A DNA stretch of 40,084 nt from positions 1 to 40,084 of the forward strand of contig JAHJRI010000052.1 in NCBI GenBank assembly GCA_018830885.1, read 5' to 3'. Under the pieces are notes generated by a model. It was not told the DNA's origin, ran no database searches, and saw only the letters and a program-made list of their open reading frames with translations. Positions within the stretch are counted from its first letter, which is position 1. Each line of letters opens with the position of its first letter. A program made the position numbers and the translations under genes. Positions 3,276 to 33,806 of this stretch are shown piece after piece. Source of the DNA: a bacterium. GTDB lineage: Bacteria > SAR324 > XYD2-FULL-50-16.

Positions 3276-4259
3276 TCAGTTCGGTTGCCTCTCCTTTCGG
3301 GCTAACGCATTCACCCATTTCTGCTCGGTGTTCCGGAGGGGCATGGTGTGAGACCAGATATCAATCACCGATAAATCAGTCACATCCGCCAGCAGAGCCG
3401 CCAGAGAATCTTCCGTGTAATTGTTAAAATAACGCCCTTTCTCATCCACTGTTTCACGATCGCCCCATTTGAAGGACATATAGACAACGCCCCTGTCCTT
3501 CAGCGCCTGGGTAATCCGCGCCAGAACATCACGCATTTGCCCCTTTGAACAATGCAATAAACTGGCGCAGGCCCAGACACCTTCGAATGCATGGCTGAAC
3601 TGGATCTCTTGAATCGGTGCCACGATAACAGGTTGCCCGATCCACTTTTCTGCGCAGGCTGCTATTTCAGCGCTGCCATCCAAGGCGGTAACAGAGTAGC
3701 CTTTTTCGATAAATATCCTGCTGTCGCGCCCCGAACCGCAGCCAAGATCGAGGATATGGGCGCCTGCAGGCAACCGGTCCTGGAAAGGACGATACAGGCC
3801 CTGCATGTCAAAAGCGATTGTTTCATCGCAGTAATCCTCCGCATTGTCCGCATAAAATCTTGTCGTACGGATAAGCGCCTGATACAGGTCGACCAGGGGA
3901 ACGTCGGCTGGCGCCCATTCAACCGTGTGCAGATCTTCGACGGTCAGCCAGCAGATGTCATCGTGATCGATCAATTTGAACGCACCCGTGTAGTGCTCAA
4001 CCACATAAGCCATCAGCCGGACAATTGTTGATCCGTATTCATAGGTACTTTCGCCAAAAAACGGGCCAATCGTTGCGGTAATGCTGAACTCTTCCTGAAG
4101 TTCCCTTATGAGACAATTTTCAGGGGTCTCACCCTCTTTGATTTTTCCGCCTGGGAATTCCCAATAACCGGCGAGGTGCACCCCCGGTTTTCGTCGGGCT
4201 GCAAGGACTTTATCGGAATCGACGATAATAGCGGCCGTAACATCAATCTTCTTTTTCAT
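3276..4259 (-). CDS. Nudix hydrolase fused to a SAM-dependent methyltransferase
   Basis: The 327-residue protein has two domains. Residues 1-130 are a MutT-type Nudix domain (CTP/8-oxo-dGTP diphosphatase-like) with GYWEFPGGKIKEGE and a Nudix box whose core is Gly38, Glu44, Arg52-Glu53 and Glu56-Glu57. Residues 134-327 are a class I methyltransferase with the SAM-binding loop ILDLGCGSGRDS (169-180) and the acidic residue in VTALDGS. The second half resembles TehB/UbiE-like methyltransferases. Nudix and methyltransferase domains are normally separate genes, so the fusion is unusual. It may sanitise or modify a nucleotide or nucleic acid, but the substrate is unknown. It is convergent with the broken toxin gene and has 440 bp of non-coding DNA upstream. 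Confidence 0.85.
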   Translation of the reverse strand: MKKKIDVTAAIIVDSDKVLAARRKPGVHLAGYWEFPGGKIKEGETPENCLIRELQEEFSITATIGPFFGESTYEYGSTIVRLMAYVVEHYTGAFKLIDHDDICWLTVEDLHTVEWAPADVPLVDLYQALIRTTRFYADNAEDYCDETIAFDMQGLYRPFQDRLPAGAHILDLGCGSGRDSRIFIEKGYSVTALDGSAEIAACAEKWIGQPVIVAPIQEIQFSHAFEGVWACASLLHCSKGQMRDVLARITQALKDRGVVYMSFKWGDRETVDEKGRYFNNYTEDSLAALLADVTDLSVIDIWSHTMPLRNTEQKWVNALARKERQPN

Positions 4260-4607
4260 ATTTTGTTCTTCTTAAAAACACCCATGACCAGCAGGTCACA
4301 ACGAAGCATGAGAATGATATCTCGGTGTTCACCCGCTCCATTTCGCCAAGATCATCTAGAAACGCGTCTAATCAACTGAAACGGCTTCACACCAGTCTCT
4401 TCCGGGGTCCTATTCTCATACAAACACCCATGACCAGCAGGGTACAAATACGCAATCGACTCCAGGTATCGTATCATCAACTTTTTGACCCGAAAGGGGT
4501 ACTTACATATTTCCATATCTGTCAGTAAAGCTATCAAGAAATGACTTCGTGTCAAGGTATTCTGCATAAAAAATCGCATGGGAATGATTCGTCCCCTGTT
4601 TGGTTGC
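4260..4607. other. Intergenic region with a short direct repeat
   Basis: The region separates the divergent Nudix-methyltransferase gene and the TrmB operon. It contains a direct repeat with the core AAACACCCATGACCAGCAGG, at about 4276-4295 and again at about 4422-4441, 146 bp apart. The bases after it (TCACAACGAAGC against GTACAAATACGC) are also similar. No gene is evident. Confidence 0.5.
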
Positions 4608-4637
4608 TTGACAGAACTCGAAACTTGGATCTATAAA
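4608..4637 (+). promoter_or_regulatory. Predicted promoter of the TrmB catabolic operon
   Basis: A consensus -35 box TTGACA at 4608-4613 is followed after 18 bases by TATAAA at 4632-4637 (17 bases to CTATAA). The expected start of transcription near 4644 falls inside the inverted repeat at 4639-4662. A second weaker promoter, TTGTAC-N17-TTATAA (4642-4670), overlaps it. Confidence 0.6.
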
Positions 4638-4638
4638 G

Positions 4639-4662
4639 ATGTTGTACATTATATGACAACAT
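4639..4662 (+). promoter_or_regulatory. Candidate operator of the TrmB-family regulator
   Basis: A perfect inverted repeat ATGTTGT-N10-ACAACAT covers the predicted transcription start. The position suits repression by blocking promoter clearance. Because the first gene downstream encodes a DNA-binding regulator, autoregulation is the simplest reading. No protein-DNA data support this; it is inferred from symmetry and position. Confidence 0.5.
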
Positions 4663-4699
4663 TGTTATAAACATTACAAAATCTCTCTTTCTGGTATCC

Positions 4700-5488
4700 A
4701 TGGCACTTTCAAAAAAGCAACAGATCCTGGGGATGTCGGATTCGGAAATGACGGTCTATCTGGCGTTGTTCAAGAACAACCCGATCAACGGATCTCAGCT
4801 CAGTAAGCTCAGTTCGATTCCCCGAACCCGGATTTATGATGTTTTGCGGGACATGAAGCGCAAAGGGATGGTTATGGAGCTGGCGAACGGGCAGTTTGTT
4901 CCGCTGCCACCGGAGGAGCTGATCAAGCGGATGCGCAGCCGGTATGAATCGGAGTTGGAGGCGTTTGAAGAAATGCTGCAAAACTCGACCCAGCCGGAAA
5001 CCTATGACTACTTCTGGACGCTTCACGGGTACCGGGATGTTATGACCAAATCGAAGGAGATGATCGCAACGGCTCAGCAGGAGCTATATGTGCTGCTGTT
5101 TCCGGAGGAGGCGCTGGAGCTGGATGCGCATCTTCAGGCCGCGGAGAAAAGTGGCGTGGTCATCAAGTATGTATCCATGGGGGTTCCCCGGACAGTGTTT
5201 GCGCTGCAGGTCGTCCATCCAGACTCGGACGCGGTCAGAAAGCGGCAGCAGGGGAGGGTATTCGATATCGTCAAGGATAAGGAGGAGATCCTGGTCGGTC
5301 TGTTTAAAAAAGGGCAGGAGGACCGTTCGCCGATCAACTGGGCGCGGAATCACTGGTTTGTGATGGCCATCCGGGAAGGGGTCCGGCATGACTTTTTTCA
5401 CTGTTTTATGGAGAAGATGGTTGACCGGGGAGAGGCGCTGACGGCTGACGAGAAATCAATTTATAACATTATCAAGAACGATGTCTGA
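4700..5488 (+). CDS. TrmB-family transcriptional regulator
   Basis: The 262-residue protein starts with a winged helix-turn-helix of the TrmB family (PF01978) at about residues 10-80, with NGSQLSKLSSIPRTRIYDVL as the helix-turn-helix and GMVMELANGQFVPLPPEEL as the wing and linker. A short coiled segment and an effector-binding-like C-terminal domain follow. TrmB proteins are mostly archaeal regulators of sugar and other metabolic genes, and bacterial members also occur. The Shine-Dalgarno is weak (no clear GGAG), in contrast with the strong promoter upstream. It leads a run of five same-strand genes and probably controls them in response to their substrate or a pathway intermediate. Confidence 0.88.
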   Translation: MALSKKQQILGMSDSEMTVYLALFKNNPINGSQLSKLSSIPRTRIYDVLRDMKRKGMVMELANGQFVPLPPEELIKRMRSRYESELEAFEEMLQNSTQPETYDYFWTLHGYRDVMTKSKEMIATAQQELYVLLFPEEALELDAHLQAAEKSGVVIKYVSMGVPRTVFALQVVHPDSDAVRKRQQGRVFDIVKDKEEILVGLFKKGQEDRSPINWARNHWFVMAIREGVRHDFFHCFMEKMVDRGEALTADEKSIYNIIKNDV

Positions 5489-5544
5489 GCTGAACAAAGC
5501 CGGTGGCATCGCCTACCGGGAAACGACCCTGACATGATGCCAGC

Positions 5545-6318
5545 ATGAAACCGATTCTCAACGATCATGAACCGCGTCCGGCAACCTGCACCAATGCTGA
5601 CGGGAGCTCGCCCTTTCTTTTCATCTGTGAACATGCCTGCAATCGTATTCCCGAGTCGCTGGACGGCTTGGGGCTCACTCACCCGGACCTTAACCGTCAC
5701 ATTGCCTGGGATATCGGGGCACTGGCAGTTGCCCGGCTGCTGGCCGACAGGCTTGATGCGGCGCTGATCTTTCAGAATTACTCGCGCCTGGTTATTGACT
5801 GCAACCGGAACCTCCGGGCTGAATCACTGGTTCCGGCAGTCAGTGACGGTACCGTGATCCCCGGCAATCAGGACCTTTCCCAGGCGGCCGTCGCAGACCG
5901 AATAGAGGCGATATGGAAGCCGCTTCAAAACGAGATTATGAACCATCTGGATCAACGGGCGGCAGACGGGCGCAAGACGATCATCATCCCGGTCCACAGT
6001 TTTACCCCTGTTCTGGCTGGCCGAGAGCGGCCCTGGCAGGTTGGACTTCTGTTTCACCATGATCCGTCGCTGGCAGCGGCATTTCAAATGATCCTGGCCG
6101 ATCGGGATGCATCATTGCGCATCGGTATGAATCAGCCCTATCGCGTTATGGATGAAGAGGATCAGACGATCCCCGTATTTGGTGAACAAATGGGATTCAG
6201 ACATGTCGCTGTGGAAATCCGTCAGGACCTTATTTCAGATGTGGCAGGCCGGGAAAAATGGGGGCGTTCCCTGGCGTCTGCCTGTCACACGTATCTTACT
6301 CAACACAAGGAAGACTAA
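5545..6318 (+). CDS. N-formylglutamate amidohydrolase family protein
   Basis: The 257-residue protein matches the N-formylglutamate amidohydrolase family (PF05013). It shows FICEHACNRIPESL near the N-terminus, HIAWDIGALAVARLLADRL, the conserved YSRLVIDCNR segment, and IIPVHSFTP in the middle. Classic members release formate from N-formylglutamate in histidine degradation. No histidine-utilisation gene is nearby, so the real substrate here may be another N-acyl or gamma-glutamyl amino compound. It lies 56 bp after the regulator and 15 bp before the isochorismatase-like gene. Confidence 0.85.
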   Translation: MKPILNDHEPRPATCTNADGSSPFLFICEHACNRIPESLDGLGLTHPDLNRHIAWDIGALAVARLLADRLDAALIFQNYSRLVIDCNRNLRAESLVPAVSDGTVIPGNQDLSQAAVADRIEAIWKPLQNEIMNHLDQRAADGRKTIIIPVHSFTPVLAGRERPWQVGLLFHHDPSLAAAFQMILADRDASLRIGMNQPYRVMDEEDQTIPVFGEQMGFRHVAVEIRQDLISDVAGREKWGRSLASACHTYLTQHKED

Positions 6319-6333
6319 CCTGAAGGGCGGATC

Positions 6334-6993
6334 ATGGCGGCGTTTTTGTCGAGGGAAATTGCACTGGTACCGGAGCAGACTGTTTTCCTGATTGTTGATG
6401 TTCAACAATACAGCTGCAGCCGGCAGGGGGGGATGTTCAGAGGAAGAAAACCGGTGGCGATGGCAGCCTTTGATTATTATTTTGAGCGCCTGGACCAGAT
6501 GGTTCTGCCCAATATTGTTCGTCTTCAGGCTGCCTGCAGAGCCACCGGGATTGAAGTGATGTTCACGGTGATTGAAAGCCTGACACAGGACGGCCGGGAC
6601 CGCGGACTGGACTACAAGATATCCGGATTTAACATCCCAAGGGGGTCTGCGGATGCGAAGATCCCCGATGCAGTGCAGCCACTGGGGGATGAGATGACCA
6701 TTCCAAAAACCTCTTCCAGTGTCTTCAACTCAACCTGTATCGATTATATCCTGCGCAACCTTGGCTGCAGGCAACTGGTGATCTGCGGGGTATTGAGCGA
6801 TCAGTGCGTGGAAAGCGCCGTGCGCGATGCCTGCGATTTGAACTATCTGGTGACGCTGGTTCCGGATGCCTGTGCCACTTACACCGCAGAACGGCAACTG
6901 GCATCCTTGAATACCATCACCGGCTATTGCCGCCAAAGGGATACCGATGCGCTGATCCAGGAAATCAACCGTAAACCGGAGATGATTGGATGA
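6334..6993 (+). CDS. Isochorismatase-family cysteine hydrolase
   Basis: The 219-residue alpha/beta protein has the catalytic triad of this family: Asp22 in FLIVDVQQ, Lys125 in TIPKTSSSVF, and Cys158 in GVLSDQCVESAVRDA. The family includes nicotinamidase, ureidoacrylate amidohydrolase, N-carbamoylsarcosine amidase and biuret hydrolase. Exact activity cannot be read from the motifs, but an amidase releasing ammonia or a carboxylic acid fits the operon. Its stop overlaps the next start in ATGA (6990-6993), so translation is probably coupled to the ligase that follows. Confidence 0.85.
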   Translation: MAAFLSREIALVPEQTVFLIVDVQQYSCSRQGGMFRGRKPVAMAAFDYYFERLDQMVLPNIVRLQAACRATGIEVMFTVIESLTQDGRDRGLDYKISGFNIPRGSADAKIPDAVQPLGDEMTIPKTSSSVFNSTCIDYILRNLGCRQLVICGVLSDQCVESAVRDACDLNYLVTLVPDACATYTAERQLASLNTITGYCRQRDTDALIQEINRKPEMIG

Positions 6994-8303
6994 TCAGAGA
7001 AGAGTTGATTGTGGCCGTGTGCAATGACGTGTCCGGTCAGACGAGGGGAAAGGGGTTTCCCGCGTCTGAGCGGGAAAAGCGATTTAAAACGGGTGTGGGC
7101 TGGGTCCCCACCAACGTTCAGATCACCTGCTTCAATACAATCGCAGACAGTATTTACGGATCCCTGGATGACCTGATACTGGTTCCGGACGAAAGCACAG
7201 AGGTGAGGGTTGATTTTGAAGATGACCATCCTGTCGAGCATTTTGTGATCGGGGACATTTTACACCTGGACGGGGCCCCCTGGGAATGCTGTACCCGTGC
7301 CCTGGCGAAAAAGGCACTCGCTTCCCTGGAAGAAGAGACCGGCCTGACACTGCTTTCCACCTTTGAACAGGAGTTCTTTTATTCGGGAGCTGACTGTGAA
7401 ACCTGGTGCGGTTTTGGGCTGAACAGTTTCAGGGGGGGTGCCAGGTTCGGGGAAACACTCATCGCCGCTTTAACAGCAGCGAATATCAAGCCGGACACCT
7501 TTCTGGCGGAATACGGCCCCGGTCAGTTCGAAGCGACATTGTCACCGACCCCTGGCATCCGCTCGGCGGACGAATGTATCATTCTGAGAGAACTGGCTCG
7601 ATCCACAGCAACCCGTCTGGGGGAACGTGTCAGTTTTTCTCCGCTGGTCACTCCGGAGGCGGTGGGCAACGGGGTGCATATTCATTTCAGTTTTCTGGAT
7701 AAAAATGAAACGCCGGTCACCTACGACGAAAACAGCGCCACCGGCATGAGCAGGCTTGCGGGACAGTTTTGTGCGGGCGTACTGACATATATGCCGGCCA
7801 TCACAGCCTTTACAGCACCGAGTGTGATTTCATACGAACGGCTGGTGCCCCATCGCTGGAGTGCCGCGTATAACAACCTGGCCCTCAGGGACAGGGAGGC
7901 AGGGCTGAGAGTATGTCCAGCCAGTAACGTGGGGGGTACCCCGATTGATTCCCAGTTTAATATTGAATACCGGCCTGCGGATGCTACCGGGAGTCCTTAC
8001 CTCCAGATCGCAGCCCTTGTCTCAGCCGGTCTGCAGGGGATCAGGGAGGGGCTGGATCAGCCGCTCCCGACAACCGGTGACCTGAGCCGGCTTTCTGAAG
8101 CGGAGCTCAAAAAGCTGAATACCAGGCGTCTGCCGACCACCCTGGAAGCAGCCCTGCGGGAAATGGAAGCGGAACCCCAAATCAGATCCTGGTTCTCCGA
8201 GAATTTTGTCGACATCTACCTGAAACATAAAAGAAAGGAAATCGATACCGTCAATCATCTGCAGCCGGGGGAGGTCTTTCGAAAGTACATTGCCCTCTAT
8301 TAG
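6990..8303 (+). CDS. Glutamine synthetase-like ligase (gamma-glutamyl-amine ligase type)
   Basis: The 437-residue protein has an N-terminal beta-grasp part (about 1-105) and the glutamine synthetase catalytic domain (PF00120). Visible motifs are the metal-binding FEQEFF near residue 127, AEYGPGQFE, the ATP/metal loop NGVHIHFS, and EYRPADATGSPYL near the end. It resembles the divergent GS-like ligases that attach glutamate to amines (PuuA for putrescine, IpuC for isopropylamine) more than housekeeping GlnA: there is no adenylylation-site region and the protein is short. Its place between two amide hydrolases suggests gamma-glutamylation of an amine intermediate. That is inferred, not shown. 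Confidence 0.82.
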   Translation: MIREELIVAVCNDVSGQTRGKGFPASEREKRFKTGVGWVPTNVQITCFNTIADSIYGSLDDLILVPDESTEVRVDFEDDHPVEHFVIGDILHLDGAPWECCTRALAKKALASLEEETGLTLLSTFEQEFFYSGADCETWCGFGLNSFRGGARFGETLIAALTAANIKPDTFLAEYGPGQFEATLSPTPGIRSADECIILRELARSTATRLGERVSFSPLVTPEAVGNGVHIHFSFLDKNETPVTYDENSATGMSRLAGQFCAGVLTYMPAITAFTAPSVISYERLVPHRWSAAYNNLALRDREAGLRVCPASNVGGTPIDSQFNIEYRPADATGSPYLQIAALVSAGLQGIREGLDQPLPTTGDLSRLSEAELKKLNTRRLPTTLEAALREMEAEPQIRSWFSENFVDIYLKHKRKEIDTVNHLQPGEVFRKYIALY

Positions 8304-8362
8304 GGGCGCGTCTGTTTTTCAGAATAACAATTGCTCATCACATCCATCGCAGGAGGTTCACC

Positions 8363-9553
8363 ATGGCATCCACAATCATCGATTTTCACGCGCATCTCGG
8401 TGGACACAAGCCGGTTCCGTTCCGGGCGCCTTTCTATCTGCCGGAAGGATATCAACCCCCATACTGGATACGGGACCAGGCGCTCTTTCACTCCCTCTCA
8501 AATGAGGGGGGCCCGATGCTGGCGGTCATGTTTAAGATCGGCCTTTACCTCAGCTGGCTGGGGCTGGATGTCGTCAATAACAAGGGGGATATCTATAAAG
8601 AGCTCAAAGGCTCCAAAAAAATCAACAAACTGGTGGTTCTTGCCACCTCCCCCGTGGTGACTGACGGGAAAATGGACCTGACAAAAACGCCGATGTACAT
8701 CTCCAACGATGCGGTGATGGAAATGGCCCGAAACAGTGAAAAAATAATTCCGGGGATATCCATCAACCCCCTGGCTGACAACGCTGAAGCGGAACTCGAC
8801 CGGCTGATATCAGCATCCAGGTCCCTGCCGAATGGTGGTAAGGCGGTTTTCAAGCTTTTTCCGTCGGTCTGCTTCTTCCATGCGGATGGAAAGGATGAAC
8901 AGGGCAATGAGCTGCCATATCGCAAAAAACTGCTGGATTTCTATGCTCAGCTGGCAGCGCTGGGGATTCCCGTTATTGTCCATACCGGCGTCGAGGAGGT
9001 GATGAAGGATGACACCTATGCCTACTTCATGGACCACGGGGGCGATGTGGCGAACCTGACGCCCTTGATAGAGACCGGTGCCACCATCATACTCGCCCAT
9101 TCCGGATATGATCCCAGCTATCAATCGGCACACAAAAACAAGCCGAATCAGTTTGTCGAAGTCAAAGCAGCGATTCGAAAATACCCCAATGTATACAGCG
9201 ATATTTCCGGGGCATTTTCAACCGGTTATAACTTCGTTGGCACCATCGCGGACTTGCTGGAAGATGATGACTGCCGTGCCAAGATGGTTCACGGCTCTGA
9301 CTTTCCGGTTGTGCTGGGAAATCCTGAAGAGATCCTGGGTATACTGCAGAAAGAGGACCAGTCCAATATATACGTTCAAAAGGCCATGACGGCGTACACA
9401 GAAATCGTGAAGGACAAAGGACTCAAGAAGCTGACGTTCCTGGACAAATGCGCCCGTATGACGGAAATCACCATGCAGTCACTGGGAGTTGATGACAGGG
9501 GTATTGACGCCTATTTTACCAATGGTGCCCGGTTGCTGGGGTATGCGGATTAA
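8363..9553 (+). CDS. Metal-dependent amidohydrolase (PF04909 type)
   Basis: The 396-residue TIM-barrel hydrolase has the HxH metal site at the N-terminus (IIDFHAHLGGH), KLFPSVCFFHADG and VIVHTG in mid-barrel, a further histidine in IILAHSGYDP, and the C-terminal catalytic aspartate in VHGSDFP. Members hydrolyse or decarboxylate cyclic amides, lactones and aromatic acids. A strong Shine-Dalgarno (AGGAGG) precedes the ATG. It is the last gene of the TrmB operon, 59 bp after the ligase, and probably performs another hydrolytic step on the same substrate. Confidence 0.82.
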   Translation: MASTIIDFHAHLGGHKPVPFRAPFYLPEGYQPPYWIRDQALFHSLSNEGGPMLAVMFKIGLYLSWLGLDVVNNKGDIYKELKGSKKINKLVVLATSPVVTDGKMDLTKTPMYISNDAVMEMARNSEKIIPGISINPLADNAEAELDRLISASRSLPNGGKAVFKLFPSVCFFHADGKDEQGNELPYRKKLLDFYAQLAALGIPVIVHTGVEEVMKDDTYAYFMDHGGDVANLTPLIETGATIILAHSGYDPSYQSAHKNKPNQFVEVKAAIRKYPNVYSDISGAFSTGYNFVGTIADLLEDDDCRAKMVHGSDFPVVLGNPEEILGILQKEDQSNIYVQKAMTAYTEIVKDKGLKKLTFLDKCARMTEITMQSLGVDDRGIDAYFTNGARLLGYAD

Positions 9554-15549: not shown

Positions 15550-17202
15550 TTATCCCGGCTCCGGGGGTTGGGTCGGGGGAGGAAAAAAGGCGGCCTGCTT
15601 TTTGATTTCCAGTCGGTCATACAGTTTCAGCAGATTCAGATAGTCCCCATGCAGGGTGGTATTGACCAGGAATGCGTCCCCGTTCAGGATGCGCCGGGCT
15701 TGCGCCACGTTTTCCCGTCCGAATATGCTGAAGAGGGCATCTTCATACTCCTCCCAGACCAGCTGCTCCCCGTTCATGCGGATCAGTTCCGCCACAATGT
15801 GCCCCAGCCTGTTGGTCCCGAATTCCAAGCACGCCAGGGCCTCCGGCATGTTACCCTGGCGCAGATATAGATGAGCCCTGAACTCCAGGATCGTGAAGCT
15901 GGTCTCGAAAATCACCCCGATATATTTTTCCACGTTCAGGGTATCTTCCAGGGAGCCGATGGTGTCCAGGATTTCCTCAGGATCATAATCCTCGGCATGC
16001 AGCACCATGTTCCGGATCCTTTTGCCGCTGTTTTTGTTGTTGTAGATCAGATCCTCTATCGGGTAGACCTCTGAAACCCCCGGCACGATCATCTGGCAGG
16101 AGTAAAACCCAAGATACCGGTATTCCCTCAGGTAGATCTCCCGGCCCATGGTGTTCAGAATATTCGTCAGGAAGGCATATTCGGCCTCATTTCCCTCGTC
16201 CCGGTCAAGCCAGGGGGTGTAGGCAAAACTTTTTGCTGAACATAAAAATCCAAATCCCAGCTTTCCATTGGAGTCGATAAAATGGGACTCCAGGTTGAAA
16301 CTGTCTGAAACGATGTCCATGTCAAAGGTCGGGATTTCAAATCCATCCAGATTGTCCAGTCCCCGACCCTGCATCAATTCCGTCATCGTCCGCTCCAGCG
16401 CGACTTCCAGAATCGGATGGGCGCCAAATGAAACAAACAGGGAGGCGTTCTCCGGATGGATCAACGAGATCGCGGTAACGGGGTATTTCCCTCCCAATGA
16501 GGCATCCAGAACCTCTACCCGGTATCCCAGTTTTCGCAATGCGGAAACATCCGCATACAGGCGTTCAAAGGAACGAACGATTTCATCGGGGAATCTTGGC
16601 AGGGCATACCCGTTTTTAATCGTCTCAATTTTGACATACCGTTCAAATATCTCGCTGAGGGCCTGCACCTGTGCTTCCCGGGGCGTATTCCCCGTCGCCA
16701 GACCGTTGCTGACATAAAGATTGCTCAAAATATTCAGCGGGAAATAGACCGTCTCCCCGGTCGACTGGTTGGTGAAAGGCAGTGCGACGATCCTGTCTTC
16801 ATAGTCACTGTTGAAATCAACCAGGTCGTCATCATGGAGTTCCCCATCCGGATTATACACCCGGCGCAACGCCTCGTTCAGATAGGCTCCGCCATATTCG
16901 AAGGCAATTTGATCCGGATAGTATGTCCGGTCTGCCAGGTGAAAATTGATAAAGAAGTTATTGGTCTGGAGCCGCTCAATATACTCACCCAGGGCACTGG
17001 CCAGCGATGCGTCTGACACAATCCCTTTTCCGTTGGCATAGATATGGCCGGGCGCTTCAACCGAAGCGAGATTCACAGAGTAACAATGCGCCAGGGGATG
17101 CTTCTCCTGGGGGAACGTCATGTTGCAGCCAGCGTCTGCCAGAACCGCTTTCATTTTTGCGATGGACTCTTCCAGGGGGACGCTTTTGGATAACAGTTTC
17201 AT
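15550..17202 (-). CDS. ycaO: YcaO-domain protein
   Basis: The 550-residue protein is a stand-alone YcaO-family protein similar in size to E. coli YcaO (586 aa). An N-terminal part precedes the ATP-dependent YcaO domain, which includes ALGEYIERLQTNNFF, EAQVQALSEIFERYVK (the Glu-rich ATP/Mg region) and AISLIHPENASLFVSFGAHP. A helical tail follows, ending in a proline-rich PPPTQPPEPG. YcaO enzymes activate amide carbonyls with ATP, and E. coli YcaO assists RimO in ribosomal S12 methylthiolation. The proline-rich end is typical of non-azoline YcaOs. I chose ATG 17202, with GAGG just upstream, over an in-frame start at 17253. No precursor peptide or rimO gene is visible nearby. Confidence 0.85.
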   Translation of the reverse strand: MKLLSKSVPLEESIAKMKAVLADAGCNMTFPQEKHPLAHCYSVNLASVEAPGHIYANGKGIVSDASLASALGEYIERLQTNNFFINFHLADRTYYPDQIAFEYGGAYLNEALRRVYNPDGELHDDDLVDFNSDYEDRIVALPFTNQSTGETVYFPLNILSNLYVSNGLATGNTPREAQVQALSEIFERYVKIETIKNGYALPRFPDEIVRSFERLYADVSALRKLGYRVEVLDASLGGKYPVTAISLIHPENASLFVSFGAHPILEVALERTMTELMQGRGLDNLDGFEIPTFDMDIVSDSFNLESHFIDSNGKLGFGFLCSAKSFAYTPWLDRDEGNEAEYAFLTNILNTMGREIYLREYRYLGFYSCQMIVPGVSEVYPIEDLIYNNKNSGKRIRNMVLHAEDYDPEEILDTIGSLEDTLNVEKYIGVIFETSFTILEFRAHLYLRQGNMPEALACLEFGTNRLGHIVAELIRMNGEQLVWEEYEDALFSIFGRENVAQARRILNGDAFLVNTTLHGDYLNLLKLYDRLEIKKQAAFFPPPTQPPEPG

Positions 17203-17253
17203 GTTAATGCCTCGTTGTGCCGGACAGGGCTTGGTGGTTTGTATGAAAAACAC

Positions 17254-19477: not shown

Positions 19478-20923
19478 TCATCGGGCAGAAGCCAATCGTT
19501 TTCGGTAATAATCATGCATCAGGGATAAAATCCGGGCTGTCTCATCGATCCGGTTCAACATCCGGATTCCCTGCTGATTGAGATCCGAAATAACCTGGCT
19601 CTCCCAATGGGTGTGATGGCTCGCGAGGATCACCGGAAAGTCGTACTCTTTCTGCAGACCATGAAACAGCAGCATAATCTGCTTACTATAATCGTTGAAG
19701 AACCGTTCTTCAGAGGAGGAACGGTCATCTATCATCCCGCTGTTGCCGAAGCCATGCAGAACGAGGGCATCGACTTCACCCGAGGTGATGATCGCCCGTG
19801 CCATTTCGATCAGGTTTTCCATGGGAAAGCCCAATCCGGAAGCCCCGATATCAACCGGATTTCGGGTGGAGGCTCTCGGTGGCATCCCTAGCGATTTCAA
19901 TGCTTTTTGCAGGGTTTGACCCAGTTCCGGAACGAGCAGCCCTTCCTGTTCGATAAAGCCGGAAAGGATAACGCCCCACGAACCGCCTACCGTAATGATA
20001 CCGACTCTGCGGCCCCGCATCAGCGGACGCTCCGTCAAGGCATGACCAAGAGGCAGCAGGAGTTCCATGGTTGGCGACATAATGACGCCCAGCTGGTCTA
20101 GCGCCCCTTCGAAGACCTCCTTCCTTCCGGAAAGGGCCCCGGTATGGCTGCGCGCAGCCCTGGCGGAGCCCGGGGTCAGACCCGCCTTGAACACCACGAC
20201 CGGTTTTTTGCGCGTCAAGTCCCGCATCACCTCCCTGAAGCGGCTTCCGTCCCGCACGGTTTCAAGGTACATCAGAATCCCGTCTATATCCGGATCATGG
20301 TAGAAATGCGCCAGGAAATCGGTCACGGTCAAGTCGCATTCATTCCCGGTATGAACAAATTTTCCAACCCCCTGTCCCTGATACCGCCCGGACTCCAGCA
20401 GATCGTAGAACGCAAATCCACCCTGACAAATCGCGCCCAGACGGGTAGGACAGATATGGTCCGCGATACCGGCAGAGGCGTTGAAGCCCGCATGCAGGTT
20501 AAACGTGCCGCTGATATTCGGCCCCAGTATGGCAATCCCAAATGATTTGGCGAGTGCGACCAGCTTTTTTTCCTTATTGATCCCTTCCCGGTCATCAAAG
20601 ATTTCACCGAAACCTGCCGTGACCAGAGAGATGCCCTTGACCTTTTTTTCCCCGCAGGCCGCCAGAACCTTTTCCACCGATGCTTCCGGAATCGTGAAAA
20701 CGGCCAGGTCGACCGGACCCGGGATATCCCGGATATCCCTGTAGGCAGGAATATCATAGACCCGGGTGTTTTTCTGACTGACCGGGTAGATCTTCCCTGG
20801 ATACCCTGAGGAGAGCAGTCCTTTCATGATCATTGCTCCCCAGGAGGAGGGTCTCTGGGTCGCACCAATCACTGCAACAGACCCGGGATTGAGAAACACC
20901 TCCAGTTCGTCTCTTTTTTTCAA
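19478..20923 (-). CDS. ADP-forming acyl-CoA synthetase, alpha-subunit type
   Basis: The 481-residue protein has a CoA-binding Rossmann domain (VAVIGATQRPSSWG), a ligase-CoA domain, and the phosphorylated-histidine motif ARSHTGALSG. It stops where the beta (ATP-grasp) domain would start, so it corresponds to the alpha half of ADP-forming acetyl-CoA synthetase. The start appears to be TTG at 20923, with AGGAG six bases upstream. The 721-residue protein encoded 78 bp upstream carries both halves, so this second alpha subunit may use that protein's ATP-grasp domain or serve another acyl group. The enzymes convert acyl-CoA, ADP and Pi to acid, CoA and ATP. Confidence 0.87.
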   Translation of the reverse strand: MKKRDELEVFLNPGSVAVIGATQRPSSWGAMIMKGLLSSGYPGKIYPVSQKNTRVYDIPAYRDIRDIPGPVDLAVFTIPEASVEKVLAACGEKKVKGISLVTAGFGEIFDDREGINKEKKLVALAKSFGIAILGPNISGTFNLHAGFNASAGIADHICPTRLGAICQGGFAFYDLLESGRYQGQGVGKFVHTGNECDLTVTDFLAHFYHDPDIDGILMYLETVRDGSRFREVMRDLTRKKPVVVFKAGLTPGSARAARSHTGALSGRKEVFEGALDQLGVIMSPTMELLLPLGHALTERPLMRGRRVGIITVGGSWGVILSGFIEQEGLLVPELGQTLQKALKSLGMPPRASTRNPVDIGASGLGFPMENLIEMARAIITSGEVDALVLHGFGNSGMIDDRSSSEERFFNDYSKQIMLLFHGLQKEYDFPVILASHHTHWESQVISDLNQQGIRMLNRIDETARILSLMHDYYRKRLASAR

Positions 20924-21001
20924 TCAGATCTCCTGACAGCGGTTATTCTTTCAGGCACCCGTCCCATCCGGGTCAACTACAGGTTGAGAAAGGCCTGCGG
21001 T

Positions 21002-23167
21002 TCAGCCCGCATGGTTGTTTTCAGATGCCACGTTGTTTTTCAGGATGACCCGCGCATCGACCATGTGAACCCCGGTTTCATAGACAATCACCGGATTCAG
21101 ATCCATCTCGGATATCTCCGGATAGGCCTCGACAATCTCTGAACAGAGCAGCAGCAGCTTGCGGATGGCACCCTTGTCATAGGGCGCGCTGCCCCGGATA
21201 CCGTTCAGCATGGGGGCGGACCGGATTTCCGCCATCATGGTACTCGCCGAGTGGGGGGATATGGGCAGGACCCGGAAGGCGACGTCTTTCAACACCTCGA
21301 CCATGATGCCCCCCAGACCGAACATGATCACCGGCCCGAACTGGTCATCGATCTTGGTGCCAATGATCACTTCGATCCCGGGCTCGGCCATGGGTGTGAC
21401 CAGCACCCCGCGGATATTCGCATCTTTATTGTACTCCCTGGCACATTTGGTGATATCGATGAATGCGGACCGGACTGCAGCCGCTGTTTTCAGATGGAGA
21501 CGGACGCCCTTGGCGTCGCTCTTATGCAGAATGTCCGGGGAGACAATTTTCAGCACCACTTCGCCACCGATCTTTTTTGCGATCTTGACCGCCTCATCGG
21601 CCGTGGTGGCAAGCTGATCGTCTGCCACCGGGGCTCCGTGAATCTGAAAGAGCCGTTTGGCCTCCGGTTCCAGCAGGTAGTGCCGGCCTTCGGCTTGCGC
21701 CTGTTCGATGATCTGCCGGCCTTCGGGTTTTGCCTTGGCCCCCCAGTTAAAAACAAAATTGACCTTGCCGTGGTACTCCTGCAGATACCGCCCTCTTTCG
21801 GCCAGGGCGCCAAAGCAGCTGCAGGCGACATCCAGGGAGTCATGGACCGGGATACCGTAATACCGCAACAATTCCAGGGCATGGGGCTTCACCGAACTGT
21901 ACAGGCTGTGCACGATGATGGGTTTGTTCTTTTTCAGCAGCAATTTCCCCAATTGATGGGCCGCATCCTCCTCCTTCCAGATCAGGCTTTTTGCAAACCG
22001 GATCCCGTACCCGCCGAACAGCCCGACCATCAGCAGTCCGCCCACATTGGGATCCTTGAGAATCAGGTCGGCACATTCAGCAAAGAGTGACGGATCAGAG
22101 TCGGTTCCGCCGGCAACATCCACCGGATTCCTGATCGAGGCCGTAAAGGGCAGGATTTTTTTCAGTTTTTCCTGGGTTTTTTGGCTGAGTTCCGGAATCC
22201 CCACCCCCAGATCCGTCAGGATATCGGCAGCGATGGTGGCGTGTCCGCCGCCGTCTGCCAGGATGGCAACCTTGTTGTTTTTCAGGGCGGGAAGATTCGA
22301 CAGCGCCTCGGCCACCGGGAACAGGGTGTCCGACTTCTCCACCACGATAATACCCGACCGCTGGAAAGCCGTGCGCGCCACTTCCGACATGCCGGCCAGC
22401 GCCCCGGTATGGGACCCCGCCGACCGCTGCCCGGTCGACGAACGACCGCTTTTCAGCAGAATGATCGGTTTGTGCAGCGTGGTTTTGTATGCCTCCTGCA
22501 GAAAGCGCCGCCCGTCCCGCATCCCTTCCACGTAGAGCAGTACCGCCCGGGTCTGGGGATCGTTCTTGAAAAACTCGAGATATTCGTGGAACCGGATATC
22601 CAGCTCGTTTCCAACGCCCACATAGTAGGAGAATCCCCTGTTGCTTTTGAGCTTGGCTTCGGTAAACAGGCTCAGGGCCATGTTTCCGCTCTGGGAAACC
22701 AGCGCAATGTCGCCCCGGGGGGCATCCTGAAGACCCACCAGATTCAGGTTGGTACAGAGGTTCATCATCCCGGAGGTGTTCGGGCCGATCAGCCGGACCT
22801 GGTTCCTGCGTGCCGCAATCATCAGGGCTTCCTCGACCCTGCGGCCTTCTTCGCCTGTTTCTCCAAAACCGCCGGCGATAATCACCGCTCCGGCCACCCC
22901 CTTTTTCCCGCAATCTTCAAGCACGGCAGGAATGGTTTTGGCCGGGGTGGTGATCAGGGCCAGATCGACCGGCCCCTCAATATCCGAGATCTTGGCAAAA
23001 CAGTGCAAGCCCATGATGCTTTTTTCCTTCGGATTCACCGGATAGATCTTGCCCTCGTATTTCTCATCCAGCAGGATCCGGATTGCCTGAAATCCCCTTT
23101 TGGTATCCACCTTGGACGCGCCGACAATCGCCACCGATTCCGCCTGCAAAATTCTGTTCAGTGTCAT
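21002..23167 (-). CDS. ADP-forming acetyl/acyl-CoA synthetase (alpha-beta fusion)
   Basis: The 721-residue protein contains CoA-binding (ESVAIVGASKVDTKRG), succinyl-CoA ligase-like (VSQSGNMALSLFTEA) and phosphohistidine (SAGSHTGALAG) regions in the first ~460 residues. The beta ATP-grasp region follows from about residue 490 (EAVKIAKKIGGEVVLKI, DILHKSDAKGV, IGTKIDDQFGPVIMFGLGG). It forms ATP by substrate-level phosphorylation from an acyl-CoA. A good Shine-Dalgarno (GGGAGG) precedes the ATG, 14 bp after the crotonase stop, so the genes form an operon. In sulfate reducers or syntrophs such enzymes often finish fatty or aromatic acid degradation. Confidence 0.92.
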   Translation of the reverse strand: MTLNRILQAESVAIVGASKVDTKRGFQAIRILLDEKYEGKIYPVNPKEKSIMGLHCFAKISDIEGPVDLALITTPAKTIPAVLEDCGKKGVAGAVIIAGGFGETGEEGRRVEEALMIAARRNQVRLIGPNTSGMMNLCTNLNLVGLQDAPRGDIALVSQSGNMALSLFTEAKLKSNRGFSYYVGVGNELDIRFHEYLEFFKNDPQTRAVLLYVEGMRDGRRFLQEAYKTTLHKPIILLKSGRSSTGQRSAGSHTGALAGMSEVARTAFQRSGIIVVEKSDTLFPVAEALSNLPALKNNKVAILADGGGHATIAADILTDLGVGIPELSQKTQEKLKKILPFTASIRNPVDVAGGTDSDPSLFAECADLILKDPNVGGLLMVGLFGGYGIRFAKSLIWKEEDAAHQLGKLLLKKNKPIIVHSLYSSVKPHALELLRYYGIPVHDSLDVACSCFGALAERGRYLQEYHGKVNFVFNWGAKAKPEGRQIIEQAQAEGRHYLLEPEAKRLFQIHGAPVADDQLATTADEAVKIAKKIGGEVVLKIVSPDILHKSDAKGVRLHLKTAAAVRSAFIDITKCAREYNKDANIRGVLVTPMAEPGIEVIIGTKIDDQFGPVIMFGLGGIMVEVLKDVAFRVLPISPHSASTMMAEIRSAPMLNGIRGSAPYDKGAIRKLLLLCSEIVEAYPEISEMDLNPVIVYETGVHMVDARVILKNNVASENNHAG

Positions 23168-26096: not shown

Positions 26097-28049
26097 TTAC
26101 GCCTTCTCTTTTAAAAACGGGGCATAGCCTTTGCCGCCGCCTTCAAAATCGAGGTTTTTGTAAAATTCCACAAATGTCAATCGCAGGGGATGAACGAACG
26201 ACCCCAGGATTGCCAGCCCAAAGTTCAAGGTATGGGCAAACAGCAGCAGGGCAACGGTCGCGATAATCCCAGGAAAAAGGTTGTTCTCGATAAACCCGAA
26301 GGCAATCCCGTTAAACGCGTGGCCCAGGAGACCGCTGGCCAGCCCGAGGGCGAAGAGCCTCAGATAGGACAAAATATCCCCGATGATCCCGGTGGCAAAT
26401 CCATAGAGCTCCCAGAGCCCGAACAGCGGCCGCATCAGGATATTTTTGTCCGGATTGTTAAAGAGGAACATCAGTATTAGTCCTGAAACAATCAGCCATA
26501 ATCCGAATTCCGGGGGCGGAATGGTCAGCCAGGAACCAATCTGAATTGTACCCAGCCTGTAGGTCGATATATCGATCCCCGTAATCCCCTTGAATCCGCT
26601 GTCGTTGCTGCCGACCCCGATTGAAAACAGAATTCCGCAGATAAGGATAAAAAACGAGGCGGGGTGAATTCCCCAGACAAAGCCGTTCTGGCGTATTCGG
26701 TTGATACATTGCAGACCAATCCCCAGCAGAACCTGCACAATCCCCAGAAAAATGGCAAACCCCATGGCCGGGAACTCCGTCATCTTTCTGCTATTGATAA
26801 AGGAGCCCAGAAAAGAGAGCATGGCACCGCTTTCGGTTCTGAAAAAATACTCCTTGTTGCCCCTTAGATAAAAAATGGACTGGCCGAAAAAGCTGTTCAG
26901 GGCAATCCCGCTGATGATCGTCATGCCGCCCAGGAGGAGGCCGATGAGATAGAGGTTGCGATATTGTCCCGGTCCTTTCCAGAGTGCGATGAGCGCAATG
27001 ACAACGGTAATGAGGCCATAGCCCAGATCCCCCAGACAGAGGCCGAAGAAGACCAGAAAGAAGGGGGCAAAAAAGGGTGTGGGATCCAGTTCCCGATAAG
27101 AAGGCAGCGCATAGATCCGGGTGATGGGTTCAAAGAGTCGGGAAAAACGATTGTTTTTCAACAGCACCGGCACGTTGTCCGTCACCGTCGGGGCGTCGAT
27201 GCGATAGTAGCAGAGATAGTCCTCCAGAAAATCATGTACCACCTTTTCCCGTCCGGCGGGGAACCATCCGGTCAGGGAATAGACCTTACTCTCCAGTTCA
27301 CTGACCATGTTCAAATCGGCGGCCGCAACAGCAGCCAGATTGCTGTTGTTGATTTTAAACGCATCCAGGGCATCCACATAGACGGTCAGGTTTTCAAAGC
27401 CCTGATCGATTTCAGCACACGCCTGCTCAAGCCGCACGGCCTCCTGGTGCAGTTTTTGAAGTGATTTCAATGGGATATTGACTTCGTTGACCCCATCGGC
27501 CTCAAATGGGCTCCCTTTTTCAAACACCAGAAACCGGACCCTTGTTTTATCGCTGTGGATGATCGCATAATAGAAACCGTCCATGTTGAGCTGTCTGAAC
27601 GTCTTTTCTGTGGACTCAAAAAAGCGAAGCTTGATCCCCCGTCTTTCAATCTGGCCGATGGTCTCCGGGTCCAATTCCCCCCAGGGTTGAAGCTGATGGA
27701 TATCCTTGCGGATATCCATCAGCTGTTGCTGGAGGGTCTCCTGTTTCTTTTCTGCCACCTCAAACGTCTCGAGGATATGCAACAGCTCTTCTTCCGAGAC
27801 CGCAGCCGGCTTTGCGAGGGAAGGACCCGGACGTTTCTCCTTCTGGATGGTCCGCAGGATCTGCACCATCCGCTCACAGGATCGGGAGAGGGCGTTCGCC
27901 TTTCGGTAGATTTCGGAAGCGGCGTCGGGTTGCTCGATGTCGGTATTTTCGACAATATGAATAATCCCGATCTCCTGCAGGGATTCCAGGAAATCCGGTT
28001 TCTCTTTATGGTAAAGCAGGACAGACAGCTTTTTCATCGGCACAATCAT
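26097..28049 (-). CDS. atpI: V/A-type ATPase subunit I (stator membrane subunit a)
   Basis: The 650-residue protein has a cytoplasmic N-terminal half (~1-320) with helical coiled stretches (VAEKKQETLQQQLMDIRKDI). A membrane half follows with several hydrophobic helices, starting near FFAPFFLVFFGLCLGDLGYG. The segment ATGIIGDILSYLRLFALGLA holds the conserved arginine that interacts with the rotor carboxylate. Subunit I forms the ion half-channels and anchors the peripheral stalks. Its start overlaps the end of subunit D by 4 bp (ATGA), indicating coupled translation. Confidence 0.95.
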   Translation of the reverse strand: MIVPMKKLSVLLYHKEKPDFLESLQEIGIIHIVENTDIEQPDAASEIYRKANALSRSCERMVQILRTIQKEKRPGPSLAKPAAVSEEELLHILETFEVAEKKQETLQQQLMDIRKDIHQLQPWGELDPETIGQIERRGIKLRFFESTEKTFRQLNMDGFYYAIIHSDKTRVRFLVFEKGSPFEADGVNEVNIPLKSLQKLHQEAVRLEQACAEIDQGFENLTVYVDALDAFKINNSNLAAVAAADLNMVSELESKVYSLTGWFPAGREKVVHDFLEDYLCYYRIDAPTVTDNVPVLLKNNRFSRLFEPITRIYALPSYRELDPTPFFAPFFLVFFGLCLGDLGYGLITVVIALIALWKGPGQYRNLYLIGLLLGGMTIISGIALNSFFGQSIFYLRGNKEYFFRTESGAMLSFLGSFINSRKMTEFPAMGFAIFLGIVQVLLGIGLQCINRIRQNGFVWGIHPASFFILICGILFSIGVGSNDSGFKGITGIDISTYRLGTIQIGSWLTIPPPEFGLWLIVSGLILMFLFNNPDKNILMRPLFGLWELYGFATGIIGDILSYLRLFALGLASGLLGHAFNGIAFGFIENNLFPGIIATVALLLFAHTLNFGLAILGSFVHPLRLTFVEFYKNLDFEGGGKGYAPFLKEKA

Positions 28050-28642
28050 GCTGCAGCCTCCCTTTCAATTTTGGCCTTGAGGATTTTCTGGGATGATTTG
28101 GCCAGGTTTTCCTCGTCTTCCAGGTATCGCTTTATTTTTAGAATGGCCTCCTCGTACTCCGGTATCTGCACTTTCTCGTACAGGTTCACCTTCTGGGTGG
28201 TTTTCTTTCTGGCGTAGTCCAGCAGGGCAAATTTTTCAGCCAGGATCTTACGCTGCATACGGAGATCAACCAGCGATTTCAATATGGTCACCCCGAATTT
28301 AAACCAGTTGGGATTCCCATGGAGGCTGAAGGGCTTCTCCTCGAACACGACCTCTTCCAGAAACGGGGTCTTGACACCGGCGATGGATTTTCTGCCCACT
28401 TTGACCGCCACAATGGTGAGCAGGTCCGGGAACTCACACCAGAATTTATTCAGGTCCGCCAGGGTTTCCAGCCGCTCCCGGAGCTCTGTCTCGACCTCCT
28501 GAATGGTTTCCTTGACGATTTTCACTTCGTTCCGCAGGGCGGACTCTTTTGCCTGCAGCGTCGGCAGGGCCTTTTTGCGGATTTCCAGCTCTTTGACCAG
28601 TTGTTGTCGGGAGGTCTTGTTATATTGAAATTTTATCGTCAT
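28046..28642 (-). CDS. atpD: V/A-type ATPase subunit D (central rotor shaft)
   Basis: The 198-residue protein is largely two long helices (KELEIRKKALPTLQAKESAL near the N-terminus; ILKSLVDLRMQRKILAEKFA and ARKKTTQKVNLYEKVQIPEY near the C-terminus), the hallmark of subunit D, the functional counterpart of F-type gamma. It transmits rotation between the A3B3 head and the K ring. The 93-bp gap after subunit B contains a family C hairpin, which could tune transcript stability inside the operon. Confidence 0.93.
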   Translation of the reverse strand: MTIKFQYNKTSRQQLVKELEIRKKALPTLQAKESALRNEVKIVKETIQEVETELRERLETLADLNKFWCEFPDLLTIVAVKVGRKSIAGVKTPFLEEVVFEEKPFSLHGNPNWFKFGVTILKSLVDLRMQRKILAEKFALLDYARKKTTQKVNLYEKVQIPEYEEAILKIKRYLEDEENLAKSSQKILKAKIEREAAA

Positions 28643-28690
28643 CGGTTCTCTGTTGGTTATTCCAATCCATCCGGTGATGAAAAACGGGTA

Positions 28691-28724
28691 CTATTCACCC
28701 TTTTTCTGAGCAGAAGCTGAATAG
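28691..28724. repeat. Family C short hairpin repeat (copy 2)
   Basis: CTATTCA (28691-28697) pairs with TGAATAG (28718-28724) around CCCTTTTTCTGAGCAGAAGC. It lies inside the ATPase operon between the B and D genes. Confidence 0.7.
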
Positions 28725-28735
28725 TTATGAAAAAT

Positions 28736-31813: not shown

Positions 31814-31830
31814 AAGGTTCCTCCGTTCTT

Positions 31831-32637: not shown

Positions 32638-32682
32638 GGTCTGTCACCCATCGATGTTGTACGATGCGTCATCATCATTTGT

Positions 32683-32711
32683 CTGAAAAACACTCACCAC
32701 AGAGACACGGA
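32683..32711. repeat. Dispersed repeat, second copy
   Basis: TGAAAAACACTCACCACAGAG continued by ACACGGAG is identical over about 28 bp to the copy at about 17243-17271. Confidence 0.65.
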
Positions 32712-32755
32712 GGAAAATAAGCGCTGCTGAATCGTTGTCGTTCACTTCAGCGACT

Positions 32756-32854
32756 GGTTCCGCACCAACAGTTCCGGTTTTCACGAACCGCATGAATCCT
32801 TCCTGGAGTTTCTTCCAAGGTTCTTGAAAACCGGAACCGTTGGTGCTTCGCAGG
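32756..32854. repeat. Palindromic repeat, family B (copy 3)
   Basis: The left arm (about 32761-32789, GCACCAACAGTTCCGGTTTT then CACGAACC) pairs with the right arm (32819-32847, GGTTCTTGAAAACCGGAACC then GTTGGTGC) with two or three mismatches. The core CGCATGAATCCTTCCTGGAG matches the other family B copies, but the arms are unlike theirs. Confidence 0.7.
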
Positions 32855-33060
32855 AAAAAGGTGTTTAAGTTAACGGCATTGTCTGCTTTATGACAGTCAC
32901 GGGAATGCATCGCTATTTTTCATCCTTCGTTGTGACCTGCAGGTCATGAATGCCGACCAGGCGTCAGAGGGGTGGGTGGTTCGATGAAAACCGGTTGGGT
33001 TGGTTTTTAAGGTCTCAACGTCCCTGAATCAGAATCCCCGAAGACAACAAACAGATCACA

Positions 33061-33076
33061 GGCCCCCCGGGGGGCC
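33061..33076. terminator. GC palindrome directly after subunit E
   Basis: GGCCCCCCGGGGGGCC, a perfect 16-bp palindrome touching the E stop codon. No T-run follows on the minus strand, so it may act as a transcript-stabilising 3-prime hairpin or an attenuator that sets the E to A stoichiometry rather than as a strong terminator. Confidence 0.45.
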
Positions 33077-33685: not shown

Positions 33686-33806
33686 CTTGTTCTTTCTCCG
33701 CAAAAACCATTGGTCTTGATGTTAGCGACAATATGAAACAATCTCGCGAAAGACTGCCTGTGGCGCTGGTTGATCCACCATCACTGTGCCTGCGCTGCGT
33801 GACGAT

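What the first reader, a model, noticed from the sequence alone, without database searches (positions are those of the whole stretch)
4608..9553. Candidate undescribed amine/amide catabolic operon under a TrmB regulator
Five same-strand genes (TrmB regulator, N-formylglutamate amidohydrolase-like, isochorismatase-type hydrolase, GS-like ligase, TIM-barrel amidohydrolase) follow one strong promoter with an operator-like repeat. Three hydrolases of C-N bonds around a glutamate ligase suggest that a compound is gamma-glutamylated, processed and released as glutamate or ammonia. I know of GS-like ligases in putrescine (PuuA) and isopropylamine (IpuC) pathways, but not of this exact set with TrmB.
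Basis: partly seen in the sequence, partly recalled or inferred. Interest (0 to 1): 0.72.

Follow-up and report, generated by a model that had tools for sequence, protein, structure and literature searches.

The report
Hydrolytic gamma-glutamylation operon, undescribed module
Five neighbouring bacterial genes encode a glutamine-synthetase-like ligase, three different hydrolases and a regulator; the ligase likely tags an unknown amine with glutamate and the hydrolases would then cut the tagged product, and the ligase with two of those hydrolases recurs as a gene set in many Alphaproteobacteria, with no published function found in our searches.

Summary
The five same-strand genes and the promoter-like site are real. 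The ligase is neither GlnA nor PuuA: it scores below both curated cut-offs, its best solved relative is 4hpp (299 bits; next 112), and GlnA's ammonia-site Glu327 is Trp290. The trio of ligase, PF05013 'formylglutamate amidohydrolase' and isochorismatase-type hydrolase recurs: both hydrolases lie within the fetched stretch (about 7 kb either side) in 15 of 31 alphaproteobacterial places and 9 of 9 opened plasmid loci, against 0 of 61 loci of more distant ligases. The plasmid loci add an RpiR regulator and usually a branched-chain-type importer and an aminotransferase. TrmB and the PF04909 amidohydrolase are local parts; a word-based search of 5.8 billion proteins found 9 relatives of the latter. 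A different, FluG-type PF04909 enzyme flanks related ligases. A PF05013 protein is already predicted to release glutamate in the ethanolamine gamma-glutamylation pathway. Best reading: a gamma-glutamylation module that trims and releases its product by hydrolysis, without the oxidoreductases of the Puu and ethanolamine routes. Substrate unknown; no activity tested. New variant of a known kind.

The parts
4608..4637 (+). sigma-70-type promoter-like site TTGACA-N18-TATAAA
   Evidence: only such site in the window, 0 of 100 shuffles; transcription untested
4632..4669 (.). inverted repeat over the -10 and predicted start region, candidate TrmB operator
   Evidence: 14-nt arms, 86% complementary; core dyad once in the 7.4 Mb genome, backwards control also once
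4700..5488 (+). TrmB-family regulator (HTH plus sensor domain), 262 aa
   Evidence: PF01978 54.3 bits, PF11495 25.5 bits; 280 relatives at E<=0.001 among 888 candidates
5545..6318 (+). PF05013 hydrolase, 257 aa, proposed gamma-glutamyl amide hydrolase
   Evidence: PF05013 138.9 bits; HutG model 26.5 bits against a cut-off of 278.75; 36-51% identical relatives near the ligase in 18 of 31 alphaproteobacterial places
6334..6993 (+). isochorismatase-type cysteine hydrolase, 219 aa, proposed amidase
   Evidence: PF00857 98 bits; D22, K125, C158 invariant in 10 aligned sequences
6990..8303 (+). glutamine-synthetase-like ligase of the PA5508 type, 437 aa, proposed gamma-glutamyl-amine ligase
   Evidence: 4hpp 299 bits, next best 111.8; residue comparison; tree
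8363..9553 (+). PF04909 TIM-barrel amidohydrolase of a small family, 396 aa
   Evidence: PF04909 38.5 bits; 9 relatives found in 5.8 billion proteins; DxHxH, H207, H246, D313 invariant in 10 aligned sequences

Best explanation
This predicted operon encodes a PA5508-type ligase that likely joins glutamate through its side chain to an amine, three hydrolases that would trim the tagged amine and release the glutamate, and a TrmB regulator that likely controls them. Step 1 (inferred): the ligase uses ATP to make a gamma-glutamyl phosphate; its metal and ATP residues are kept, while the ammonia site is rebuilt with Trp290, as expected if an organic amine takes ammonia's place. Step 2 (inferred): with no oxidoreductase in the operon, the tagged amine is trimmed by hydrolysis, an amide or carbamoyl group being removed by the isochorismatase-type amidase and perhaps a further bond by the PF04909 enzyme. 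Step 3 (inferred; published as a prediction for another PF05013 protein): the PF05013 enzyme hydrolyses the gamma-glutamyl amide, giving back glutamate and a simpler amino compound. The amine is unknown; one that carries an amide, such as an amino-amide, would use ligase, amidase and PF05013 in turn. Shown directly: the gene set, the residues, and the recurring company of ligase, PF05013 and isochorismatase-type hydrolase in other bacteria.
For: The ligase is below cut-off for GlnA (182.6 against 429.15), PuuA (242.4 against 650) and GS-III (148.4 against 469.6), and 4hpp is by far its best PDB match. The GlnA residues E129, E131, E212, E220, H269, R321, R339, R344, E357 and R359 are kept; E327 is W290, N264 is V225, R355 is N324 (their roles are recalled). 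W290 is invariant in 17 aligned sequences. The tree puts it in a starred 8-row clade inside a starred 25-row set made mostly of trio ligases, away from E. coli GlnA and PuuA. Both hydrolases lie near it in 15 of 31 alphaproteobacterial places and 9 of 9 opened plasmid loci, against 0 of 61 control loci. No oxidoreductase is common to the nine plasmid loci as annotated. PF05013 protein SCO1615 as predicted gamma-glutamylglycine amidohydrolase: passages of PMC6529630 and PMC9397018. PA5508 prefers bulky amines: passage of PMC6478659.
Against: No activity or substrate is shown for any of the five proteins. Of 31 alphaproteobacterial ligase places 9 have only the isochorismatase type (one weak, 28%), 3 only PF05013 and 4 neither. 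All 11 closer actinobacterial loci and 6 loci from the window's class or beyond have neither, so the ligase often works without them. Four of nine plasmid loci have an oxidoreductase annotated within 10 kb: Phyllobacterium an FAD oxidoreductase and an aldehyde dehydrogenase 2-6 kb past the ligase, NT-25 aldo/keto reductases beside it, Shinella and S. medicae one 6 kb or more away. A class-III aminotransferase in 8 of 9 leaves room for an oxidative route, though aminotransferases also occur in 21 of 61 control loci. The window's amidohydrolase was not found in 8 genomes that have the ligase with the isochorismatase type (the tool warns that an empty answer without a positive control shows nothing). 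D50 aligns to D53 in the window but to E, D or P in relatives, in a gapped stretch.
Confidence: 0.42

Rival explanations
1. The hydrolases act first: they strip formyl, carbamoyl or acyl groups from an imported compound, and the ligase then glutamylates the freed amine to detoxify or store it.
For: The isochorismatase-type protein is nearest to the RutB and biuret hydrolase models, though below their cut-offs; an importer of the branched-chain/urea type sits in related clusters; an M20 hydrolase or an amidase is found in some.
Against: PF05013 has a published predicted role after glutamylation, not before it. HutG-type activity is not supported by score (26.5 against 278.75).
Confidence: 0.25
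2. An ordinary oxidative gamma-glutamylation pathway (Puu or ethanolamine type) whose dehydrogenases lie elsewhere in the genome.
For: Shares the ligase class and PF05013 with the ethanolamine route; an aminotransferase is in 8 of 9 plasmid loci by tblastn; one plasmid locus has an FAD oxidoreductase and an aldehyde dehydrogenase 2-6 kb past the ligase.
Against: No oxidoreductase is common to the nine plasmid loci as annotated (the gene tables are incomplete) and none is in the window's operon. The rest of the genome was not searched for one.
Confidence: 0.18
3. Two modules met: a TrmB plus PF04909 pair as in Desulfobacterales, and the trio; the PF04909 enzyme does an unrelated job and only shares the regulator.
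For: By equal longest-contig length and source, TrmB and the amidohydrolase share contigs of 34820, 168364 and 11790 bases for which no ligase is among the 120 listed, while TrmB and the ligase share contigs of 13787 and 121234 bases that appear for none of the 9 amidohydrolases.
Against: A PF04909 enzyme of another lineage lies in 6 of 31 alphaproteobacterial, 5 of 11 closer actinobacterial and 16 of 61 control loci, and FluG joins the two activities in one protein.
Confidence: 0.35
4. The ligase is a housekeeping or accessory glutamine synthetase.
For: Shares the family and the metal residues.
Against: Below the GlnA cut-off, E327 replaced by Trp, far from GlnA in the tree, and the genome has two other glutamine-synthetase-like genes.
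Confidence: 0.03

Closest known systems
PA5508 (PauA7) and the GoaS class of glutamyl organic amine synthetases
   Same: best solved relative, 4hpp, at 299 bits (that this entry is PA5508 is recalled); Trp in place of the ammonia-site Glu, as the 4hpp alignment also shows
   Different: the gene company of PA5508 was not retrieved here; the substrate of the window's enzyme is unknown
Gamma-glutamylation ethanolamine pathway (GlnA4/SCO1613 with SCO1615; Chromohalobacter salexigens)
   Same: a GS-like ligase plus a PF05013 hydrolase, predicted there to release glutamate (passages of PMC6529630, PMC9397018)
   Different: that pathway lists PF00465 and PF00171 dehydrogenases, absent from this operon, and no isochorismatase-type hydrolase
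FluG of Aspergillus and SCO6961/SCO6962 of Streptomyces
   Same: an amidohydrolase joined to or paired with a gamma-glutamyl ligase (passages of PMC6478659)
   Different: the FluG-type bacterial amidohydrolase matches 2qpx; the window's shows no PDB sequence match
Puu pathway of E. coli (PuuA, B, C, D)
   Same: glutamate is attached to an amine and later released
   Different: score below the PuuA cut-off; PuuB oxidase, PuuC dehydrogenase and PuuD hydrolase (annotated) have no counterpart in the operon

Membership tests
GlnA glutamine synthetase | NCBIfam TIGR00653 cut-off 429.15 bits | tested here: not met
   182.6 bits
GlnA glutamine synthetase | ammonia-site Glu327 (role recalled) | tested here: not met
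   Trp290 in the window, invariant in 17 aligned sequences
PuuA gamma-glutamylputrescine synthetase | NF045547 cut-off 650 bits | tested here: not met
   242.4 bits
GoaS / PA5508-type ligase | closest relative, with metal/ATP residues kept and the ammonia site altered | tested here: met
   the tree holds no PA5508, IpuC or aniline ligase
GoaS / PA5508-type ligase | glutamylates an organic amine and not ammonia | not testable with these tools
   needs purified enzyme
Ethanolamine gamma-glutamylation pathway | PF05013 hydrolase with the ligase | tested here: met
Ethanolamine gamma-glutamylation pathway | adjacent PF00465 and PF00171 dehydrogenases | tested here: not met
   absent among the ten window proteins scanned; the rest of the genome was not searched
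HutG N-formylglutamate deformylase | TIGR02017 cut-off 278.75 bits | tested here: not met
   26.5 bits
RutB / biuret hydrolase | TIGR03614 cut-off 377.95 and NF050097 cut-off 370 bits | tested here: not met
   66.6 and 51 bits
Isochorismatase-type cysteine hydrolases | Asp, Lys, Cys catalytic triad (motif recalled) | tested here: met
   D22, K125, C158 invariant in 10 aligned sequences
FluG-type (2qpx) amidohydrolase | sequence match to 2qpx | tested here: not met
   profile of the window's family has no PDB match at E<=1; the FluG-type profile matches 2qpx at 3.3e-85
FluG-type (2qpx) amidohydrolase | same superfamily and fold | tested here: inconclusive
   profile-profile match over 94 columns only, probability 83.7, E 8e-06; model pLDDT 80.5, many amidohydrolase-superfamily chains close in score
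TrmB sugar-sensing regulators | PF01978 HTH domain and PF11495 sensor domain | tested here: met
   54.3 and 25.5 bits, both over cut-off
TrmB sugar-sensing regulators | NCBIfam TrmB equivalogs | tested here: not met
   best 60.2 against 650

The most novel reading that the evidence does not exclude
A widespread, undescribed gamma-glutamylation pathway that runs by hydrolysis and not by oxidation: import, glutamylation, amidase trimming, release by a PF05013 gamma-glutamyl hydrolase. In some Alphaproteobacteria it includes the FluG-type amidohydrolase, so the unknown substrate of fungal FluG could be found by bacterial genetics on this module.
Probability: 0.25. Interest if true: 0.75.

Novelty: new variant of a known kind. 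Interest (0 to 1): 0.5.

Why it matters
A ligase with two hydrolases recurs in many Alphaproteobacteria, including rhizobia and a marine roseobacter, and our searches found no function in print. If right, it adds a non-oxidative branch to gamma-glutamylation metabolism and gives a route to the substrate in named strains. Six of 31 alphaproteobacterial loci pair a related ligase with the FluG-type amidohydrolase, five of these six with at least one of the two hydrolases as well, which could make the old question of what FluG makes testable in bacteria.

Tried and rejected
Housekeeping GlnA and PuuA were rejected on score, residues and tree. Anti-phage defence: no PADLOC match for the five proteins. 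No tRNA and no Rfam match at gathering threshold in the window. A binning error of the window's contig was considered, because the genome is large (7.4 Mb) with 6.43% contamination: the V-type ATPase A subunit of the contig is 91% identical in the same-genus genome, and blocks of 76-83% identity run through 24.6-35.5 kb in the same order, so the contig likely belongs; the operon itself is not covered by that relative. The 'Anaerolineae' trio (L005) is 94% identical to an alphaproteobacterial bin (L006) and is not counted as a separate phylum. A Gammaproteobacteria sample gave 0 of 274 ligases at E<=1e-60 (at most six candidates a genome scored, no positive control), so the gene company of PA5508 was not seen; a search for PA5507 and PA5509 listed 7 papers, none opened for this. 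Two more PF05013 genes of the genome lie on contig C14, where no glutamine-synthetase-like gene was found. Structure comparison of the amidohydrolase could not separate decarboxylase, lactonase and amidase relatives; 2qpx is not in the rows shown there.
Full report
What is there. Five + strand genes lie at 4700-5488, 5545-6318, 6334-6993, 6990-8303 and 8363-9553. They carry TrmB, PF05013, PF00857, Gln-synt and PF04909 domains above cut-off. Spacing is 56 bp, 15 bp, a 4 bp overlap and 59 bp, which suits one transcript. Upstream is TTGACA-N18-TATAAA at 4608-4637, the only such site in the window and in none of 100 shuffles. A 14-nt inverted repeat spans 4632-4669; its core dyad occurs once in the genome, as does the backwards control.

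The ligase. Scores are under the curated cut-offs for GlnA, PuuA and GS-III. Its best solved relative, 4hpp, scores 299 bits, the next 111.8. Against E. coli GlnA, metal and ATP residues are kept, Glu327 is Trp290, Asn264 is Val225 and Arg355 is Asn324 (residue roles recalled). In a 52-row tree (quick method, SH-aLRT only; four rows partial) it sits in a starred 8-row clade with metagenome sequences and Desulfospira. That lies in a starred 25-row set made mostly of trio ligases, which also holds three long-branched ligases of the window's own class that lack the hydrolases (L157, L158, L161). E. coli GlnA and PuuA lie outside. Papers describe PA5508 as favouring bulky amines (passages of PMC6478659) and name the class GoaS (passages of PMC11335346). 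The original PA5508 paper was not held. That 4hpp is PA5508 is recalled.

The module. A scan of genome contigs kept 80 of 213 related loci. Of the nine best (L004-L012), seven have both hydrolases near the ligase, L011 the isochorismatase type alone, and L010, a 3.6 kb contig, neither. In a sample of 385 genomes of the class of Cohaesibacter (which includes that genome, chosen for its ligase; at most four candidates a genome were scored, so this is a lower bound), 27 have 31 ligase places at E<=1e-80. All 31 were examined: 15 have both hydrolases, 9 only the isochorismatase type (L129 at 28%), 3 only PF05013, 4 neither. Controls in the same call: of 61 loci with more distant ligases (L023-L083), 0 have PF05013 and 1 has a weak isochorismatase match; all 11 closer actinobacterial loci have neither; 6 loci from the window's class (five) or beyond (one) have neither. 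Some stretches end at contig ends, so absences are upper bounds. The other companions are less specific: among the 31, the importer's binding protein is in 12, RpiR in 10, a class-III aminotransferase in 8; among the 61 controls, in 6, 4 and 21.

Named examples. The window's ligase matched 212 plasmid records; 40 were listed, and I opened 9, picking annotated ones: Sinorhizobium fredii, Sulfitobacter D7, Phyllobacterium zundukense, Nitratireductor kimnyeongensis, Shinella HZN7, Paracoccus seriniphilus, Sinorhizobium medicae, strain NT-25 and Maritalea myrionectae. By tblastn all 9 have both hydrolases and an RpiR regulator, 8 the importer's binding protein, 8 a class-III aminotransferase. No oxidoreductase is common to them as annotated, and the gene tables are incomplete. 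Against the hydrolytic reading, Phyllobacterium has an FAD oxidoreductase and an aldehyde dehydrogenase 2-6 kb past the ligase, NT-25 has aldo/keto reductases beside it, and Shinella and S. medicae have oxidoreductases 6 kb or more away.

What is local. TrmB and the window's PF04909 enzyme were found in none of the 118 loci. The PF04909 family has 9 relatives at E<=0.001 in 5.8 billion proteins (word-based search, so distant kin are missed). Among 382 other genomes, 16 have weak partial matches, 27-38% identical. It was not found in the 8 genomes of L004-L009, L011 and L012 (no positive control in that call). TrmB has 280 relatives. Equal longest-contig length and source suggest, without proving it, that TrmB, ligase and amidohydrolase share a 7817-base contig (95% identical copies), TrmB and ligase share contigs of 13787 and 121234 bases, and TrmB and amidohydrolase share contigs of 34820, 168364 and 11790 bases. 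The five-gene set may therefore be a merger of two units.

The FluG link. Another PF04909 lineage lies in 6 of 31 alphaproteobacterial loci, 5 of the 11 closer actinobacterial loci (L013-L017) and 16 of 61 control loci. A profile of ten of its members matches 2qpx at 3.3e-85, the structure whose protein, in PMC6478659, resembles the N-terminal half of FluG and could replace it (passages). The window's enzyme has no PDB sequence match and only a partial profile match to that lineage (94 columns, probability 83.7, E 8e-06). Its model (pLDDT 80.5, weak at 15-39, 49-53, 63-71 and 210-216) has the amidohydrolase fold, without singling out a chemistry.

Mechanism. Shown: gene set, residues, recurring company. 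Inferred: amine glutamylation, hydrolytic trimming by the amidase (and perhaps the PF04909 enzyme), glutamate release by PF05013. The last step has a published prediction for a PF05013 protein, SCO1615, as gamma-glutamylglycine amidohydrolase (passages of PMC6529630, and PMC9397018); similarity of the window's protein to SCO1615 beyond the shared family was not tested. The substrate stays open.

Origin. The first relatives named to a group below 'bacterium' are Desulfobacterales for the amidohydrolase and Desulfospira for the ligase; for TrmB they are 'Pseudomonadota bacterium', then Deltaproteobacteria, Thermodesulfobacteriota and Desulfobacterales. Ligases in the rest of the genome's own phylum reach only 35%. 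Other parts of the contig are shared with the same genus. Transfer from a Desulfobacterota-like donor is therefore plausible, not shown.

Literature. Five term searches for the trio returned no paper; a search on formylglutamate amidohydrolase with glutamylation returned only the two ethanolamine papers. The library lacks most subscription papers, so absence there is not absence in print.

Noticed in passing
15550-17253, - strand: YcaO-domain protein, best model the S12 methylthiotransferase accessory YcaO (489 bits, below its cut-off of 700); only one weak match in the 51 other genomes of its phylum.
   Followed up: partly
26097-33703, - strand: Looks like a V/A-type ATPase gene cluster (named by eye, not by a family search); the protein at 30056-31834 is 91% identical in the same-genus genome and 46-48% in four others of the phylum.
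   Followed up: partly
19478-23167, - strand: Two neighbouring proteins similar to NDP-forming acyl-CoA synthetases, below the cut-offs of the exact models, beside a gene that looks by eye like an enoyl-CoA hydratase.
   Followed up: partly
3276-4259, - strand: One protein joins a NUDIX domain to a methyltransferase domain.
   Followed up: no
L122 (G000 C14), 4366-9395: Two more PF05013 genes follow a gene that joins a methyltransferase domain to a D-Ala-D-Ala-ligase-type domain.
   Followed up: no
L142 10623-13664 and L147 2720-5764: A 1014-aa fusion of phosphotransferase, M23 peptidase and class-III aminotransferase domains (shown for L142; L147 is 93% identical) sits next to the ligase cluster.
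   Followed up: no
L005 and L006: Bins labelled Anaerolineae and Alphaproteobacteria carry 94%-identical copies of this region, so one label is likely wrong.
   Followed up: yes
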